Source of the DNA: a virus
Direction: 5' to 3' (one strand)
DNA length: 33,094 nucleotides
Virus record (IMG/VR): IMGVR_UViG_3300037502_004193
Span: 1 to 33,094 of that record
Both the position numbers and the translations under genes were made by a program. Below the pieces are notes generated by a model. The model was not told where the DNA came from. It saw only the letters and a list, made by a program, of their open reading frames with translations, and ran no database searches. The stretch's first letter is position 1. The number at the start of each line of letters is the position of its first letter. This document shows, piece after piece, positions 1 through 33,094 of the stretch.

Positions 1-15
1 CTTAAAATCTATGTT

Positions 16-1881
16 ATGAGCCTCCCTACTGACGCCCAGATTAGATATTGGGATAAAGAGAAGCAGCAGGTAGGAGTTATCCCCGACCATAGAATCAATG
101 AATATCCCGAAAAGGTCAGAGAAGAAGCAGTTATCAAAAAGCATATGGTAGCCAAAGCCGATGAAATCATTCAAAATCTCAAAGATGAAGTTGGTAAGAC
201 CAAGGCAACCAAGAATGCTTGTAAAGTAGTCAGTGCCATGTATCCTGAACAACCATTTTCAGTTGGTAGTTACTATAGATGGTCTAAGATACTTCGAGAA
301 GAAGGTGTTGTTGGTTTGATGGATGATAGGACACTCAAGCAAGAACAAGCACAAGGTAAAGTTCCTCCCAGTGTCAATGAGGAAGCTTGGCGGTTCTTTT
401 TAGGTCTCTATCTTGACCAGAACAAACCATCAGTTGCCCACTGCTGGGAGATAACCAAACTCAAAGCACAAGCGGAAGGCTGGGGAGATATCCCCACCCG
501 CAGAAGTTTTCAAAGATATGTTAATAAATTTGTTCCAAGACATGTCTTGATAGCTTACCGAGAAGGCAAGAAAGCCCTTAAAGATAAGGCTGAACCCTAT
601 ATCGAGCGGAATATTGCAGGGCTTAAGAGCAATCAAGTTGTTATTGGTGACCACCATATCTTTGATTTATTTGTTCTTAATGAAGAAGGCAATCCTGCTA
701 GACCGTGGATTACCGCTTGGATGGACATGCGTTCTAGAACCATAGTCGGATATAGGATTACTTTTAATCCTAACCTAACAACTATTATGGAAAGCTTTGC
801 TAATGTCTGTCAGGACTATGGTATCCCAGAACACATCTACATTGATAATGGAAAAGATTATCGAGCTTATCAATTCGCAGGAGGGCGACCAGTCAAGCAG
901 GAAGGCAAGATTGAAATTGATGAATGGCAAGCTACATCAATGCTAGATACTCTTGATGTTAAAATTCACTTTGCTAATCCTTATAATGCTCGTGCCAAGC
1001 CGATTGAGCGGATATTTAGAAACTTCAAAGAACACTTCTCTAGACTCTTCCCTACCTATCGTGGGGGCTATGTAGGAGAAGCACCAGAGCGATTAAATGA
1101 AGTTCTTAAAAACAAGGACAAGCTAATCACTATGGAAGAGTTTGAAGATATCTGTAGTCGCTGGATAAAGCTAGTTTATCACGAACAACCACAGAATGGT
1201 AAAGGAATGGAGAACCAATCTCCCCTTACAGTTTGGCAAGAGAATATCGAAACAGTTCGTAAGGTTAGCAAGACAGAATTAACCTTCCTATTAACTAAGG
1301 TTAAAGGAACTAGAGTTGTAGGTAGAAATGGAGTTTCAATTGATGGTATTAACTATTATAGTAGTGAAATCACTCAGTATCTAGGACAGAAGGTACAGGT
1401 TCGTTATGATACTAGCGATATATCTCAAGTCTATATCTGTGATTTAGAAGATAGATTCTTATGTATGGCTCACCCAGTAGAACAGAGCCCATTTATCGGA
1501 ATGGACGAGCAGAGCTTCAAACAAAGCAAGAAAGAGGTCAAAAAGATTAGGGATGAGGTCAAACAGTATGAAGATTATATCTTACCAGGTAAAGAGTTTG
1601 ATGTAGAAGACTTATTAGATTTAAAAGCTAAAGAGAAGGCGAAGCGTGATAAAGAAGAAGCTTTACAAGCTCCAAATGTAGTAGAAATCCAAAGAACTCA
1701 TATTAGAGAATCGCTTAAGAAATTAGAAGCAGCCAATGAAGATAGACTCAACAACTTAACAGAAGAGGAATTAGATAATATTCACCAATTATTCAAAGCC
1801 AAACAGCCACCAAAACAAGATGAAGAAGAGCTTCGTAAACAGGATATGCAGGATTTAAAAGATGCCTTAGAAGGATTATAG
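16..1881 (+). CDS. Mu A-type DDE transposase (start possibly upstream of window)
   Basis: Catalyses strand transfer of phage ends during integration and replicative transposition. A D,D,E catalytic triad is visible: D212 in GDHH, D277 in YIDNGKDY and E331 in AKPIERIF. The spacings of 65 and 54 residues are close to those of MuA (67 and 56). The N-terminal ~200 residues look like the helix-turn-helix DNA-binding part, and the C-terminal ~120 residues are highly charged and helical, as expected for the region contacting the B ATPase. At 621 residues it is near MuA length. The frame is open back to base 1 and no ribosome site precedes the ATG at 16, so the true start may lie outside the window. 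The small gene at 1897 follows after 15 bases and MuB lies ~0.85 kb downstream. Family call is secure; the start is not. Confidence 0.95.
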   Translation: MSLPTDAQIRYWDKEKQQVGVIPDHRINEYPEKVREEAVIKKHMVAKADEIIQNLKDEVGKTKATKNACKVVSAMYPEQPFSVGSYYRWSKILREEGVVGLMDDRTLKQEQAQGKVPPSVNEEAWRFFLGLYLDQNKPSVAHCWEITKLKAQAEGWGDIPTRRSFQRYVNKFVPRHVLIAYREGKKALKDKAEPYIERNIAGLKSNQVVIGDHHIFDLFVLNEEGNPARPWITAWMDMRSRTIVGYRITFNPNLTTIMESFANVCQDYGIPEHIYIDNGKDYRAYQFAGGRPVKQEGKIEIDEWQATSMLDTLDVKIHFANPYNARAKPIERIFRNFKEHFSRLFPTYRGGYVGEAPERLNEVLKNKDKLITMEEFEDICSRWIKLVYHEQPQNGKGMENQSPLTVWQENIETVRKVSKTELTFLLTKVKGTRVVGRNGVSIDGINYYSSEITQYLGQKVQVRYDTSDISQVYICDLEDRFLCMAHPVEQSPFIGMDEQSFKQSKKEVKKIRDEVKQYEDYILPGKEFDVEDLLDLKAKEKAKRDKEEALQAPNVVEIQRTHIRESLKKLEAANEDRLNNLTEEELDNIHQLFKAKQPPKQDEEELRKQDMQDLKDALEGL

Positions 1882-5529: not shown

Positions 5530-5755
5530 GGGGAGAGATTTTAAAAATTAGCTTTCAGAAGTTTCTTTTATAGCTTGGCAAACAGTTTTATAGAATTTAG
5601 CTATTTCTTTTGAGTATCCTTCTATACTCAAAAATCCAGAAGATTTAGCCCAATCTTTTGGTTTGGTTAATTCCATAGCTTTAAGAGTTAGTTCTTTAGC
5701 GATTTCTTGTTCAATACTCATAGTACCACCTCAAATATAAATTTTACCTCTCCCC
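5530..5755. repeat. Inverted repeat pair flanking a reverse-strand gene
   Basis: GGGGAGAG at 5530-5537 and its exact complement CTCTCCCC at 5748-5755 bracket a 57-codon gene on the opposite strand. AT-rich bases adjoin both arms. A second, closer inverted pair (5708-5721 and 5760-5773, 13 of 14 matching) spans the start of the reverse gene: ATGAGTATTCAACA on + mirrors ATGAGTATTGAACA on -. The arrangement suggests an inserted cassette or a divergent duplication, but eight bases is short for a transposon end. Confidence 0.5.
5548..5721 (-). CDS. Reverse-strand small protein (57 aa), unknown function
   Basis: This is an opposite-strand gene in an otherwise all-forward early region. The reverse strand reads GAGGTGGTACT then ATG (5721-5719) and runs 57 codons to TAA at 5550-5548. 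The protein begins MSIEQEIAKELTL and ends with a helical Lys/Ser tail. It is soluble, with one Cys and no known motif. A correct ribosome site, in-frame length and the lack of any + strand gene in this 290-base gap support it. Location and orientation suggest cargo (a moron) transcribed independently of the lytic operon. No convincing promoter was found for it. Confidence 0.6.
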   Translation of the reverse strand: MSIEQEIAKELTLKAMELTKPKDWAKSSGFLSIEGYSKEIAKFYKTVCQAIKETSES

Positions 5756-5810
5756 GATGATGAGTATTCAACATAGAACATTAATAATCCTGTAAAAGAG
5801 GTGAATATCA

Positions 5811-6017
5811 ATGGCTGATTCCAACAGCAATGAGAAATATAAGATTTTATTACTTAATACCTTTATGAAAGACTTTTATAAGTTTCACGATGAAGAGTAT
5901 GACACTTTAGAGGAAGCTAAAGAGGAAGTTAAAAGAATGATTACAGAGGAATTCATACATGCTCAAACGATTCAAATTGTTAAGACAGTTTATAAACCTA
6001 AAGTAAATGTATTATAA
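5811..6017 (+). CDS. Small early protein, unknown function
   Basis: A 68-residue protein with AGAGGTGAAT before ATG 5811. It reads as an alpha/beta small domain (KYKILLLNTFMKDF, then an acidic helix EAKEEVKRMITEEF, then a strand TIQIVKTVYK). This resembles a ubiquitin-sized fold, but no family is recognised. It lies 21 bases before the Gam gene and is probably co-transcribed with it. Confidence 0.65.
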   Translation: MADSNSNEKYKILLLNTFMKDFYKFHDEEYDTLEEAKEEVKRMITEEFIHAQTIQIVKTVYKPKVNVL

Positions 6018-7404: not shown

Positions 7405-7445
7405 CCTTAGTGATGGTAAACATTGCTAAGGTTTTTATTTTTTTT
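7405..7445 (+). terminator. Intrinsic terminator between mor and endolysin
   Basis: CCTTAGTGATG (7405-7415) pairs with CATTGCTAAGG (7421-7431) over eleven base pairs, two of them G.U, with loop GTAAA. TTTTTATTTTTTTT follows at once. It ends the early operon. The endolysin ribosome site starts right after the T-run, so no promoter fits between them. Late transcription must therefore start upstream and pass through this structure, making it a possible attenuator. Confidence 0.85.
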
Positions 7446-7458
7446 GGAGGTGTTAAAA

Positions 7459-7989
7459 ATGAAAATTATCATCGACCCAGGACACGGGGGAAAAGACCCA
7501 GGAGCTTGCGGAGAGTTTAGCCAGGAAAAAGATATAACATTAAAGATTGGCATAATGTTATATTCATTATTAAAAATGTATGAGAACTATGAAGTGGAAA
7601 TGACTAGAGAAAGAGATACTTATCCCACTTGGGTAAGAAGAGTCAAGTCGGAAGCAGAAGATATTTTTATCTCTATTCATTGTAATGCAACAGTTAATAA
7701 AGAAGTTAATGGAATAGAAACCTTCCATTATCCAAATAGTGAGCAAGGTGAAAGATTAGCTAATTTAATTCAGTCTAAATTGATTGCAGCTACTAATCAG
7801 AAAGACAGAGGGGTTAAATCAGAAGAAGGATTATATGTACTACGAAAAACAAAATGCCCGTCAGTTTTGGTGGAGTGTGGATTTATCTCCAATCCAGAGG
7901 GAGAGAAATCCCTTAATGAAGCTAAATATCAATATTTATTAGCTTTGACTATTCTTGAAGGGATAAAAGAATACCTGGAGGGCGAATGA
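7459..7989 (+). CDS. Endolysin: N-acetylmuramoyl-L-alanine amidase (Amidase_3)
   Basis: A zinc hydrolase that cuts the bond between muramic acid and L-alanine in peptidoglycan to release phage. The catalytic-domain motifs are all present: IIIDPGHGG with H9, QEKD with E23, SIHCN with H74 and VLVECGFISN with E139. Together these supply the zinc ligands and general base. The 176-residue protein is a bare catalytic domain with no separate wall-binding module. ATG 7459 follows GGAGGTG, while the longer in-frame reading from 7423 starts inside the terminator. No signal peptide is seen, so export relies on the holin. Its stop overlaps the next gene by four bases. Confidence 0.95.
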   Translation: MKIIIDPGHGGKDPGACGEFSQEKDITLKIGIMLYSLLKMYENYEVEMTRERDTYPTWVRRVKSEAEDIFISIHCNATVNKEVNGIETFHYPNSEQGERLANLIQSKLIAATNQKDRGVKSEEGLYVLRKTKCPSVLVECGFISNPEGEKSLNEAKYQYLLALTILEGIKEYLEGE

Positions 7990-29784: not shown

Positions 29785-30150
29785 ATGCAAATCAAAGAGA
29801 TAAATCAAGGACAAAAAATACCTTATGCTCTTGATATAGAGAATAAGAGTATATCTTTTGATGAAGAGTTAGTTGTAAATTTAGCTGAAAGGCAATCAGA
29901 TGTTAAAAAGGTGATTGATATATCTTTAAATAAGCAGAAAAAGCTTATTGAAGGAACTGCTCAATGGTATGTGGCGAATTTAGTTATTCCTGCTGTTGAA
30001 TATAATTTTGTAGATACAGGAGAAATTAACGAGAATGGCGAGAGCATAATGGAGAAAATCAAAGTTCCTTTAAATGTAGATGATGTTGAATTGGTTTTAT
30101 GGGCTATGCCGACAGATTATTTTAATAAAGAAGATGGAGGGGTTAAATAA
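29785..30150 (+). CDS. Protein upstream of DGR target, unknown function
   Basis: A 121-residue soluble, acidic protein with AAGGGGTGAT before ATG 29785. No family is recognised. It shares a one-base TAATG junction with the DGR target gene, implying coupled translation and a functional link, such as a fibre chaperone or trunk for the variable protein. This is inference from coupling only. Confidence 0.6.
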   Translation: MQIKEINQGQKIPYALDIENKSISFDEELVVNLAERQSDVKKVIDISLNKQKKLIEGTAQWYVANLVIPAVEYNFVDTGEINENGESIMEKIKVPLNVDDVELVLWAMPTDYFNKEDGGVK

Positions 30151-31223
30151 TGAGTTTTGTATATAGTATGAAGGATAGTTATAGACAAGCGGTAGAGGCA
30201 CAAACAGGAGGGAAGAACACTGTTATTTATGATGACAAGGGATACCCTTCTATTATGGTGGCTATTCCAATGTTCTACTTAGATGATGTGATTGATGGAG
30301 CACCTCATGAAGTCCATCCTGCTTTTAAAGTTAATGGAGAAATTAAGGATGTTATTTATATCTCTAAATATCAAAATGTAGTGCATGATGGTAGAGCTTA
30401 TTCACTGCCGATGCAAGACCCAAGAACATATGTTAACTTTGACCAAGCAAGGAATTATTGCAAAGATAAGGGGCAGGGATGGCATCTTATGACAAACGCT
30501 GAATGGGCTGCTATAGCTCTATGGTGCAAGAAAAATGGTTTTGAACCTCATGGAAATAATAACTATGGACAAGAAGTTACTGCTTCTTACGAGAAAGGTG
30601 TAGCAACTTACAAATATGATGACCCTCAAGTGATTGGGAGAGTAGCTACAGGTTCAGGACCCGTTACTTGGGCACACGATGGAACTTTGGCAGGAATCTA
30701 TGATTTGAACGGTAATGTTTGGGAGTGGGTAGATGGACTAAGATTGATTAATGGTAAGATTTGGGTTTTTGACGATAATGACTTTATGACTGATAATGTT
30801 GCTGGTGATACTACTAACTGGTTTGATACAGGGACATATATTGATAATACTACTGCTGGGGATAGTATTGAAGATAGTCATAATGTAGGCGGGGAATTAA
30901 TCTTTAGTGATACACGAGATAACCCTATGTATGATAGTGATGTCAATGAACATTATGGGTATAGTGACACTTTGTTTGAGAGTTTAAGTAAAGATGCTGA
31001 TTTTACAGTGCCTGACTTGCTTAAACATTTAGCAATTTATCCCGCAGGAACAGGTTATTTAGGCGACAATATGTGGGCTAGGAACTATGGAGAAAGGGCT
31101 GCCATTCGTGGCGGGCACTGGTACCACGGTTCTAAGGCGGGTCTCTTTGCCTTGCACTTGCGCGCTCACCGTTCTAACTCGAGCAGCAGTATTGGCTTCC
31201 GCTCTGCTTATATTCCTTTATAA
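30150..31223 (+). CDS. DGR target: variable C-type-lectin/FGE-fold receptor-binding protein
   Basis: The diversified tail-tip protein, probably the receptor binder. The 357-residue product has a formylglycine-generating-enzyme-like C-type-lectin fold, with FDQARNYCKDKGQGWHLMTN, GIYDLNGNVWEWVDGL (about 182-197) and the terminal IRGGHWYHGSKAG ... IGFRSAY. The last 112 bp of interest (31097-31208) are the variable repeat. Eight residues differ from the template-encoded Asn: H323, Y325, H326, H336, R338, A339, S345 and S346. N343 is unchanged although its codon is also AAC. Its enzyme ancestry is only structural, and no sulfatase-activating role is implied. Confidence 0.93.
   Translation: MSFVYSMKDSYRQAVEAQTGGKNTVIYDDKGYPSIMVAIPMFYLDDVIDGAPHEVHPAFKVNGEIKDVIYISKYQNVVHDGRAYSLPMQDPRTYVNFDQARNYCKDKGQGWHLMTNAEWAAIALWCKKNGFEPHGNNNYGQEVTASYEKGVATYKYDDPQVIGRVATGSGPVTWAHDGTLAGIYDLNGNVWEWVDGLRLINGKIWVFDDNDFMTDNVAGDTTNWFDTGTYIDNTTAGDSIEDSHNVGGELIFSDTRDNPMYDSDVNEHYGYSDTLFESLSKDADFTVPDLLKHLAIYPAGTGYLGDNMWARNYGERAAIRGGHWYHGSKAGLFALHLRAHRSNSSSSIGFRSAYIPL
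31097..31208 (+). repeat. DGR variable repeat (VR)
   Basis: 112 bp, colinear with TR at a constant offset of 597. Ten differences lie at 31116, 31122, 31125, 31155, 31161, 31162, 31164, 31165, 31183 and 31186, and every one corresponds to A in TR. The 3' 22 bp (31187-31208) are identical to TR and would act as the initiation-of-homology end. Confidence 0.97.
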
Positions 31224-31251
31224 TCTGTAATCTGAACACTAAAAATCTGAT

Positions 31252-31274
31252 AGGGTGGGCGATAGCCCATCCCT
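31252..31274 (+). other. Hairpin/cruciform downstream of VR
   Basis: AGGG (31252-31255) and TGGGC (31256-31260) pair with CCCT (31271-31274) and GCCCA (31265-31269), with loop GATA and one bulged T at 31270. Nine GC-rich pairs lie 43 bp after the VR end. No T-run follows, so it is not a classic terminator. In the Bordetella phage DGR a stem with a four-base loop just after VR is needed for target recognition. Confidence 0.7.
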
Positions 31275-31316
31275 AAACTTTCATAACATAATCTATAATA
31301 CAAGAGGTGGTAACAG

Positions 31317-31652
31317 TTGGACAATCTTATAGTGTATCAGAAGACCTATGATATGGTTCAGTATGGCTATCAAGCTATTAAACAGTTTCCAAGGTCAGAG
31401 AAATATACTTTTGCGGCTGAAATTAAGAGTACAATGATTAGAATATTAAAATTGATTATAAGGACTAATAAAAAGTATTATAAAAAGACCACTATGAAAG
31501 ATTTAGATATTGAATTAGAATTATTAAAAACTTATATAAGGTTGGCAAGAGACCTTAATTTCTTGCCTTTTAAAAAGTATGAAATTTGGTCGAAACAACT
31601 GCATGAAATAGGCAGATTAATTGGCGGTTGGATGAAAAGTGTTCAAAAATAA
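31317..31652 (+). CDS. avd: DGR accessory variability determinant (Avd)
   Basis: A 111-residue, strongly helical basic protein of the bAvd/four-helix-bundle (S23-like) type. Avd forms a pentamer that binds the reverse transcriptase and the template RNA and is needed for mutagenic cDNA synthesis. Signature stretches are YQKTYDMVQYGYQAIKQFPR, EKYTFAAEIKSTMIRILKL and ARDLNFLPFKKYEIWSKQLHEIGRLIGGWMKS (split at KKY). It starts at TTG 31317 with AGAGGTGG as ribosome site. It lies between VR and TR, as in Bordetella phage BPP-1. Confidence 0.93.
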   Translation: MDNLIVYQKTYDMVQYGYQAIKQFPRSEKYTFAAEIKSTMIRILKLIIRTNKKYYKKTTMKDLDIELELLKTYIRLARDLNFLPFKKYEIWSKQLHEIGRLIGGWMKSVQK

Positions 31653-31693
31653 AATATAAATACATAATGATTTTTTGGGGAGAAAGCCATTGC

Positions 31694-31805
31694 GGCTGCC
31701 ATTCGTGGCGGGAACTGGAACAACGGTTCTAAGGCGGGTCTCTTTGCCTTGAACTTGAACAATCACCGTTCTAACTCGAACAACAGTATTGGCTTCCGCT
31801 CTGCT
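31694..31805 (+). repeat. DGR template repeat (TR)
   Basis: 112 bp noncoding template with 24 A residues, 18 of them in nine AAC/AAT codons. It matches VR at 102 positions, and all ten mismatches are at A. Lying between avd and the reverse transcriptase gene on the same strand, it would be transcribed into the RNA copied with errors at A. GGAGAAAG also precedes both repeats (31089-31096 and 31679-31686), with a 7-base insertion in the TR copy. Confidence 0.97.
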
Positions 31806-31999
31806 CTAGTTCAAACATTGGTCAGAAGTTAGCAACCTATGGGGTTGCTATCCAGTACCACAAGGAATAAAGGGGCTTTCTTCCCTGCTGAGATACCCAA
31901 AGGTCAATCCAGCAAAAAATATTAATTGTCAGGAAAGTAGCTAGTAGGATTATCTCGAAAGCTGCTACGCCTGACCTTTAAAATCAACTATACTAAGGA
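31806..31999 (+). ncRNA. Structured spacer of the DGR template RNA
   Basis: The 194 bases between TR and the reverse transcriptase have no ORF but contain inverted repeats. AGCAACC 31831-31837 pairs with GGTTGCT 31843-31849. AAAGGTCA 31899-31906 pairs with TGACCTTT 31972-31979. GTCAGG 31928-31933 pairs with CCTGAC 31970-31975 and encloses GTAGC 31937-31941 with GCTAC 31964-31968. The second and third are alternatives. In studied DGRs this spacer is part of the template RNA and primes or positions cDNA synthesis. Confidence 0.65.
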
Positions 32000-33094
32000 G
32001 TGATACAAATTCCTAAGACAATAAAGAATTTATACCCTAAAATATATGATTTTGAAAATTTGTATCAAAGTTATAAAGAAGCACGAAAGTCAAAAAGGTT
32101 TACTGATGAAGTCTTGAAGTTCTCTGCTCAATTAGAGGATAATTTAATTCAAATTCAAAATGAATTAATTCATAAAAGTTATCAGCAAGGTAGATATCAA
32201 GAATTTTATGTTTATGAGCCTAAAAAGAGACTTATAATGGCGTTGCCATTCAAAGATAGAGTGGTTCAATGGGCAATTTATAGACAGATAATGCCTATAT
32301 TTGATAACCAATTTTATGAGTATTCATGTGCTTGTCGCAGAGGCAAGGGGACTCATTATGCAGTTCAAAAGTTACAATATTGGTTAAAAAAGATGGATAG
32401 AAACCCTGATAAAATATACTATTTAAAAGCTGATGTAGCTAAATATTTTTATAGGATTAACCATAAAAGGCTAATACAGATTATTAGTAGAAAGGTAGGG
32501 TGTAAGGACACTCTAGAGCTACTATGGAAGATAATAAAGAGCGAAGATGGTGCTTTTGGTGTTAATCTTGGAGACCATCAACTGTCTGGGAGAAGGATAA
32601 AAGGAATAGGAATACCTATAGGGAACTTAACGAGCCAATTATTCGCAAATATATATTTAGATTGGCTAGACAAATATATTAAACACACTTTAAAGGCTGA
32701 ATATTATATCCGTTATATGGATGACTTCATTATACTAGGAAGAGATAAAAAAGAACTTCACAAGCTAAGAGAAGAGATTGAAATTTTTCTAGAAGATTAT
32801 CTAGGGTTAGAATTGAATAATAAAACAGCAGTTAGACCAGTTAGCCTAGGTATAGACTTTTGTGGCTATGTGACTTGGGCTACACATAGGAAATTGAGGA
32901 AGTCCACTAAAAAGAAGATGAAGAGAAGGATTAAATACATGGTTAGGAAGGTCAAAGAGGGAGAAATAGGGCTAGATAAACTAGATGCTACAGTACAGTC
33001 CTATCTAGGTATATTGAGGCATTGCAACAGTCATAATTTAACCAATAGTATTATAGGAAAGAATATATTTGACATGATAAAAAATAAATATTAA
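32000..33094 (+). CDS. DGR reverse transcriptase
   Basis: The enzyme that copies TR RNA into mutated cDNA. Motifs in order are FVYEPKKRLIMALPFKDR-like (YVYEPKKRLIMALPFKDRVV, residues 70-89), the first catalytic Asp D145 in LKADVAKYFYRIN, IGIPIGNLTSQLFANIYLDW with the DGR-specific IGxxxSQ (207-213), YMDD at 239-242, and IDFCGYVTW. About 364 residues, near the usual 330-380. The in-frame GTG at 32000 overlaps the only ribosome site (AAGGAG 31995-32000). ATT 32009, eight bases after it, would give an N-terminus MPKTIKNLYPKIYDF typical of the family, so the real start may be this rare codon. The stop is the last base of the window. Confidence 0.95.
   Translation: MIQIPKTIKNLYPKIYDFENLYQSYKEARKSKRFTDEVLKFSAQLEDNLIQIQNELIHKSYQQGRYQEFYVYEPKKRLIMALPFKDRVVQWAIYRQIMPIFDNQFYEYSCACRRGKGTHYAVQKLQYWLKKMDRNPDKIYYLKADVAKYFYRINHKRLIQIISRKVGCKDTLELLWKIIKSEDGAFGVNLGDHQLSGRRIKGIGIPIGNLTSQLFANIYLDWLDKYIKHTLKAEYYIRYMDDFIILGRDKKELHKLREEIEIFLEDYLGLELNNKTAVRPVSLGIDFCGYVTWATHRKLRKSTKKKMKRRIKYMVRKVKEGEIGLDKLDATVQSYLGILRHCNSHNLTNSIIGKNIFDMIKNKY

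What the first reader, a model, noticed from the sequence alone, without database searches (positions are those of the whole stretch)
30150..33094. Complete diversity-generating retroelement at the host-range end of a Mu-like phage
VR, Avd, TR and reverse transcriptase occur in the order known from Bordetella phage BPP-1. All ten VR/TR differences in 112 bp fall on the 24 template adenines; random placement of ten differences would do this with a chance of order 10^-8. The RT has YMDD and the DGR IGxxxSQ motif intact, so the system looks active.
Basis: partly seen in the sequence, partly recalled or inferred. Interest (0 to 1): 0.85.

Follow-up and report, generated by a model that had tools for sequence, protein, structure and literature searches.

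The report
Tail-protein diversifier in a Mu-like phage
A Mu-like virus of bacteria carries a complete, probably working copy of a known gene-scrambling system (a diversity-generating retroelement) that rewrites the tip of its tail protein; the system itself is ordinary, but a regularly spaced CTG array beside the rewritten stretch looks like a conserved target signal that I did not find described.

Summary
VR (31097-31208) and TR (31694-31805) differ at 10 of 112 positions, all on the 24 TR adenines (hypergeometric P = 3.5e-8). Target gene, Avd and reverse transcriptase are intact and in BPP-1 order. The target is a full-length relative of the Thermus variable protein TaqVP (5VF4).

Relatives show the system works: two near-identical phage pairs from different metagenomes differ almost only in VR, mostly at TR adenines. 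The known Mu-like phage BalMu-1 has the same layout. So this is a new member of a known kind; activity in this phage itself is inferred.

The phased YTG array is the most interesting by-product: 154 adjacent spacings of 7 or 8 bp against about 7 expected, absent at other gene ends, rare beside TR, and kept in a subclade without the hairpin. The few relevant papers held do not mention it; whether it is described elsewhere is open.

The parts
30150..31223 (+). target gene: lectin-fold (FGE/SUMF1-like) variable tail protein, 357 aa, VR at its C-terminus
   Evidence: 5VF4 (TaqVP) E 6.8e-72 over residues 2-355; PF03781; phrog_2889 E 3.8e-132
31097..31208 (+). VR, variable repeat
   Evidence: 112-nt repeat of TR, 10 differences, all on TR adenines
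31192..31208 (+). A-free 17-nt end of VR, identical to TR; counterpart of the GC tract at the start of the BPP-1 IMH
   Evidence: sequence; position analogy with PMC3240598
31222..31249 (+). phased CTG array: AATCTG at 31222-31227, 31229-31234 and 31244-31249, with a degenerate slot (CTA) at 31239-31241; spacing 7, 7, 8
   Evidence: conserved phased YTG units across relatives
31253..31272 (+). hairpin/cruciform: 8-bp stem GGGTGGGC / GCCCATCC (one G-T pair), loop GATA (GRNA class)
   Evidence: consensus from PMC3240598
31317..31652 (+). avd, accessory variability determinant, TTG start
   Evidence: NF033474 121 bits (cut-off 80), PF22296 116 bits (cut-off 40)
31694..31805 (+). TR, template repeat, 24 adenines
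31816..31974 (+). RT-14 RNA (RF02921): structured spacer between TR and RT
   Evidence: 69.8 bits, gathering 48.1, full model 1-144; covariation 18 of 27 pairs
32009..33094 (+). reverse transcriptase; IGNLTSQ 32618-32638, YMDD 32714-32725. Start probably ATT at 32009 (Shine-Dalgarno AAGGAG at 31995-32000); the mechanical ORF call gives GTG at 32000
   Evidence: phrog_1423 E 9e-143, PF00078, 8UB7 E 1e-59; start context
1..1881 (+). MuA-like transposase, which makes the phage Mu-like
   Evidence: PF02914, PF09039, PF09299; phrog_310

Best explanation
A complete Avd-type diversity-generating retroelement in a Mu-like phage, probably of a Firmicutes host. TR and the RT-14 spacer are transcribed together as an RNA that binds the RT-Avd complex; the RT copies TR into cDNA with errors opposite adenines; the mutated cDNA replaces VR at the 3' end of the lectin-fold tail gene, guided by homology at the A-free VR end, by the downstream hairpin and probably by the phased CTG array. 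The result is a varied ligand-binding face, presumably for host receptors. Shown here: anatomy, A-only substitution, conserved structured RNA, hairpin, VR turnover in close relatives. Taken from published BPP-1 work: spacer RNA recruiting RT-Avd, priming from the spacer, cDNA retrohoming. Inferred: activity in this phage, receptor role, role of the array.
For: 10/10 differences on TR A, P 3.5e-8. Avd, RT and target by curated profiles and solved relatives. RT-14 RNA between TR and RT here and in about 22 relatives, with covariation. Hairpin with GATA loop as described in PMC3240598. Natural experiment: L005 and L027 are identical over 6535 bp except 12 bases, all in VR, 9 at TR adenines; L008 and L009 differ at 14 of 6260, 12 in VR, all 12 at TR adenines. 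Same layout in BalMu-1.
Against: No second copy of this phage was found, so VR variation in it is not observed. The hairpin starts 44 nt after the repeat end, outside the 4-34 bp range of the published phage set, though relatives here lie at 32-46. The contig ends at the RT stop, so downstream parts are unseen.
Confidence: 0.93

Rival explanations
1. A DGR that once worked but is now silent in this phage: the present VR was fixed by selection and the cassette is a passenger.
For: Only one VR is known for this phage. The RT may start at a rare ATT codon, which would mean weak expression.
Against: All parts are intact, including RT motifs, RNA, hairpin and array. Close relatives, some with the same ATT start, show fresh VR turnover (L005/L027, L008/L009). 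No non-A differences have accumulated between VR and TR, which argues for recent copying.
Confidence: 0.1
2. The CTG array is not a DGR target element but serves something else at this gene end, such as mRNA processing, termination or expression of avd, or is inherited sequence without function.
For: It lies at a gene end with a fixed neighbourhood. In the BPP-1 group the CCTGnnnnTTG part is coding, so protein constraint could explain it there. No experiment was found.
Against: 140 phased pairs in the 35 non-coding nt after the stop against 6.2 in shuffles, and all three phases where coding; 0 of 445 other gene ends have two or more phased pairs against 67 of 104 VR ends; 2 phased pairs on the TR side against 151 on the VR side; kept in loci with different target classes and in a subclade lacking the hairpin.
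Confidence: 0.3
3. Chance or an ordinary gene duplication with later drift.
For: VR and TR are two copies of one sequence.
Against: P 3.5e-8 for the A-only pattern, with Avd, DGR-type RT and RT-14 alongside.
Confidence: 0.001

Closest known systems
Bacillus phage BalMu-1 DGR (NC_030945)
   Same: Mu-like phage; target, Avd, TR, spacer RNA, RT in the same order; VR/TR 11 differences, 10 on A; CTG array and GGTA-loop hairpin after VR
   Different: RT 54% and target 48% identical; lysis genes follow the RT, whereas here an endolysin gene lies at 7423-7989
Bordetella phage BPP-1 DGR (NC_005357)
   Same: Order mtd-avd-TR-brt, A-specific VR changes, hairpin with GRNA loop (GAAA) (PMC3240598)
   Different: Not a Mu-like phage; hairpin 4 bp after VR instead of 44 nt; 21-bp IMH inside the coding region instead of a post-stop CTG array; the spacer gave no match in the one comparison seen by eye, not tested with the model
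Thermus aquaticus prophage variable protein TaqVP (5VF4)
   Same: Target protein homologous over its whole length; same prophage DGR layout (PMC6328139)
   Different: Different host phylum; function of neither tested here
Rfam RT-14 RNA (RF02921)
   Same: Full-length match above the gathering score
   Different: Rfam lists it only as an sRNA gene; its place as DGR spacer is read here from position right after TR in about 22 related loci
Halanaerobium DGR loci (L002-L011, L029)
   Same: RT 68-71% identical, Avd 75% in L002-like loci, same layout and rare ATT start
   Different: L007-L010 have another target class and no GC hairpin

Membership tests
Diversity-generating retroelement | VR/TR repeat pair with differences at TR adenines | tested here: met
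   10/10 on A, P 3.5e-8
Diversity-generating retroelement | RT with YxDD and (I/V/L)GxxxSQ motifs | tested here: met
   YMDD and IGNLTSQ, invariant positions in alignment A3; motif definition PMC3521204
Diversity-generating retroelement | VR at the 3' end of a ligand-binding protein gene, lectin or Ig fold | tested here: met
   5VF4 full-length match
Diversity-generating retroelement | RT-dependent, A-specific transfer from TR to VR | not testable with these tools
   only indirect evidence from near-identical relatives
BPP-1 (Avd) type DGR | avd gene between VR and TR | tested here: met
   NF033474 and PF22296 above cut-off
BPP-1 (Avd) type DGR | GC-rich 7-10 bp stem with 4-nt GRNA loop downstream of VR | tested here: met
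   8-bp stem, loop GATA, but 44 nt from the repeat end against 4-34 in the published set
BPP-1 (Avd) type DGR | structured spacer RNA 3' of TR that recruits RT-Avd and primes cDNA | tested here: inconclusive
   structured RNA at the right place; recruitment and priming not testable here
RT-14 RNA (RF02921) | covariance-model score above the gathering threshold | tested here: met
   69.8 against 48.1 bits
Mu-like transposable phage | MuA transposase, DNA transposition protein (MuB-like), Gam, contractile tail | tested here: met
Mu-like transposable phage | terminal att ends and replicative transposition | not testable with these tools
   record is trimmed at gene borders; ends are missing

The most novel reading that the evidence does not exclude
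Avd-type phage DGRs carry an undescribed target-site element: four or five (A)A(T/A)CTG units phased 7-8 bp apart between the VR end and the hairpin, kept even where the hairpin is gone, acting as an extended IMH that marks VR and not TR as recipient, perhaps as a binding array for the Avd pentamer or another part of the machinery.
Probability: 0.4. Interest if true: 0.6.

Novelty: new member of a known kind. Interest (0 to 1): 0.4.

Why it matters
As a DGR it adds one more phage with a tunable tail tip. The wider comparison gives handles on two questions: how the retroelement tells VR from TR (a phased CTG array is present only at VR), and what the Rfam RT-14 RNA is (by position, the structured spacer of the DGR template RNA). 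A subclade without the hairpin but with the array and with clear VR turnover (L008/L009) offers a direct test.

Tried and rejected
(1) Base pairing between the array (TCTG/ACTG) and conserved CAGA/CAGT loops of the RNA: the base before CTG does not covary consistently with the RNA (L016 fits, L013 and L031 do not, and my automatic extraction of the RNA loop was crude), so dropped. (3) Papers defining RT-14, the BPP-1 spacer work and the large DGR survey: not held. (4) Avd against solved structures by sequence: no match. (5) Versailles/crAss-like DGRs checked for the array: no phased pairs in 6 non-redundant loci. (6) Structure prediction was not run because 5VF4 covers the target over its full length. 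(7) Pooled A-fractions over 109 and 235 loci are not used as proof, because the finder penalises non-A mismatches and pairs were selected at 70-75% A or more.

Full report
Observation. The window is a whole 33,094-bp virus record. A mechanical repeat search in its last 5 kb finds one long direct repeat, 112 nt, 31097-31208 and 31694-31805. The copies differ at ten positions and all ten are A in the second copy, which has 24 A; the chance under random placement is 3.5e-8. The ten changes sit in 8 of the 9 AAY codons of TR; mutated AAY codons give many amino acids and no stops (PMC6328139).

Proteins. The gene holding VR (30150-31223) matches phrog_2889 over nearly its full length and the solved variable protein of a Thermus aquaticus prophage DGR, 5VF4, over residues 2-355 (PMC6328139). 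In that alignment the window's VR falls on the C-terminal variable region of the lectin fold. Avd passes curated cut-offs. The RT carries YMDD and IGNLTSQ, and its best solved relative is 8UB7; that this entry is the BPP-1 RT complex is my recollection, since the tool names it only 'reverse transcriptase'.

RNA. Rfam places RT-14 RNA (RF02921) at 31816-31974, just after TR and before the RT. In about 22 related loci the same family begins within roughly ten nucleotides of the TR end. My own alignment of 14 spacers gives 27 consensus pairs, 18 of them with at least one two-sided change. A model built from it also finds the spacer in BalMu-1 (not in the training set, 97.5 bits) and, more weakly, in subclades below the Rfam cut-off. 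In BPP-1 the spacer folds, recruits the RT-Avd complex and supplies the priming adenine (PMC12875486). By position and structure RT-14 is this spacer. I could not read the paper that defined RT-14, so I do not claim that this link is new.

Target site. Downstream of VR lies GGGTGGGC-GATA-GCCCATCC (31253-31272). Phage DGRs have 7-10 bp GC-rich stems with GRNA loops (PMC3240598); of 60 non-redundant related loci 46 have such a stem by my scan, 42 of them with a GRNA loop, mostly GATA. Between VR and the stem is an array of AATCTG units. Across the 60 loci, adjacent YTG spacings of 7 and 8 bp occur 97 and 57 times against 3.6 and 3.4 in mononucleotide shuffles. Restricted to the 35 non-coding nucleotides after the stop codon there are 140 phased pairs against 6.2. 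None of 445 other gene ends in the same loci has two phased pairs, against 67 of 104 VR ends (loci not made non-redundant for that control). The TR side has 2 phased pairs against 151 on the VR side. The BPP-1 group keeps CCTGnnnnTTG within the VR tail where VR and TR differ, but there it is coding. A subclade (L007, L008, L030, L034) shows no GC hairpin by reading of the sequence, yet keeps the array. The held papers that I searched (PMC3240598, PMC12875486, PMC3521204) do not mention such an array; key papers were not held, so novelty is open.

Activity. No copy of this very phage was found elsewhere. Relatives give a natural experiment. L005 and L027, from different metagenomes, are identical over 6535 bp except 12 bases, all within VR, 9 at TR adenines. 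L008 and L009, also from different metagenomes, differ at 14 of 6260 bp, 12 within VR and all 12 at TR adenines. The latter pair belongs to the group without a visible hairpin. That fits PMC12875486, where the stem-loop is important but not strictly required.

Context. MuA, a DNA transposition (MuB-like) protein, Gam, large terminase, portal, major head protein, sheath, tape measure and baseplate proteins are present: a Mu-like contractile-tailed phage. RT relatives lie in Halanaerobium, Halanaerobiales, Tissierella and Tepidibacter genomes, so a Firmicutes host, possibly of the Halanaerobiales, is likely but not shown. BalMu-1 has the same cassette.

Verdict. Real, complete and very probably functional; a new member of a known kind. 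The main added value is the phased array and the placement of RT-14. The array's function is inference; its conservation is measured.

Noticed in passing
window 31222-31249; the 48 nt after VR in over 50 non-redundant loci: Array of CTG-bearing units 7-8 bp apart between VR and hairpin, conserved across Avd-type phage DGRs, not seen in the few Versailles/crAss-like loci.
   Followed up: yes
window 32000-32011; RT starts of L002, L005, L008, L010, L011, L030: The RT seems to start at ATT (ATC in L030): these relatives have no in-frame ATG, GTG or TTG after the last stop, and in the window AAGGAG lies 8 nt before ATT while the GTG overlaps it. A rare start codon could keep RT expression low.
   Followed up: partly
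L008 5119-5300; L007, L030, L034 downstream of VR: DGRs with another target class and no GC hairpin after VR, yet L008/L009 show fresh A-specific VR turnover.
   Followed up: partly
L033 5770-5901 (BalMu-1 gp52): Annotated hypothetical protein overlaps TR (5729-5848) and the start of the spacer RNA, so it is probably a false gene.
   Followed up: no
L012 7250-8736: CRISPR repeat array (CRISPR-DR2) close to the DGR on a 38.7-kb viral contig; could be host flank or carried by the phage.
   Followed up: no
window 1-40 and 33094: The record starts 15 nt before the MuA ATG and ends exactly at the RT stop codon, which looks like trimming at gene borders; repressor genes and phage ends are missing.
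   Followed up: no
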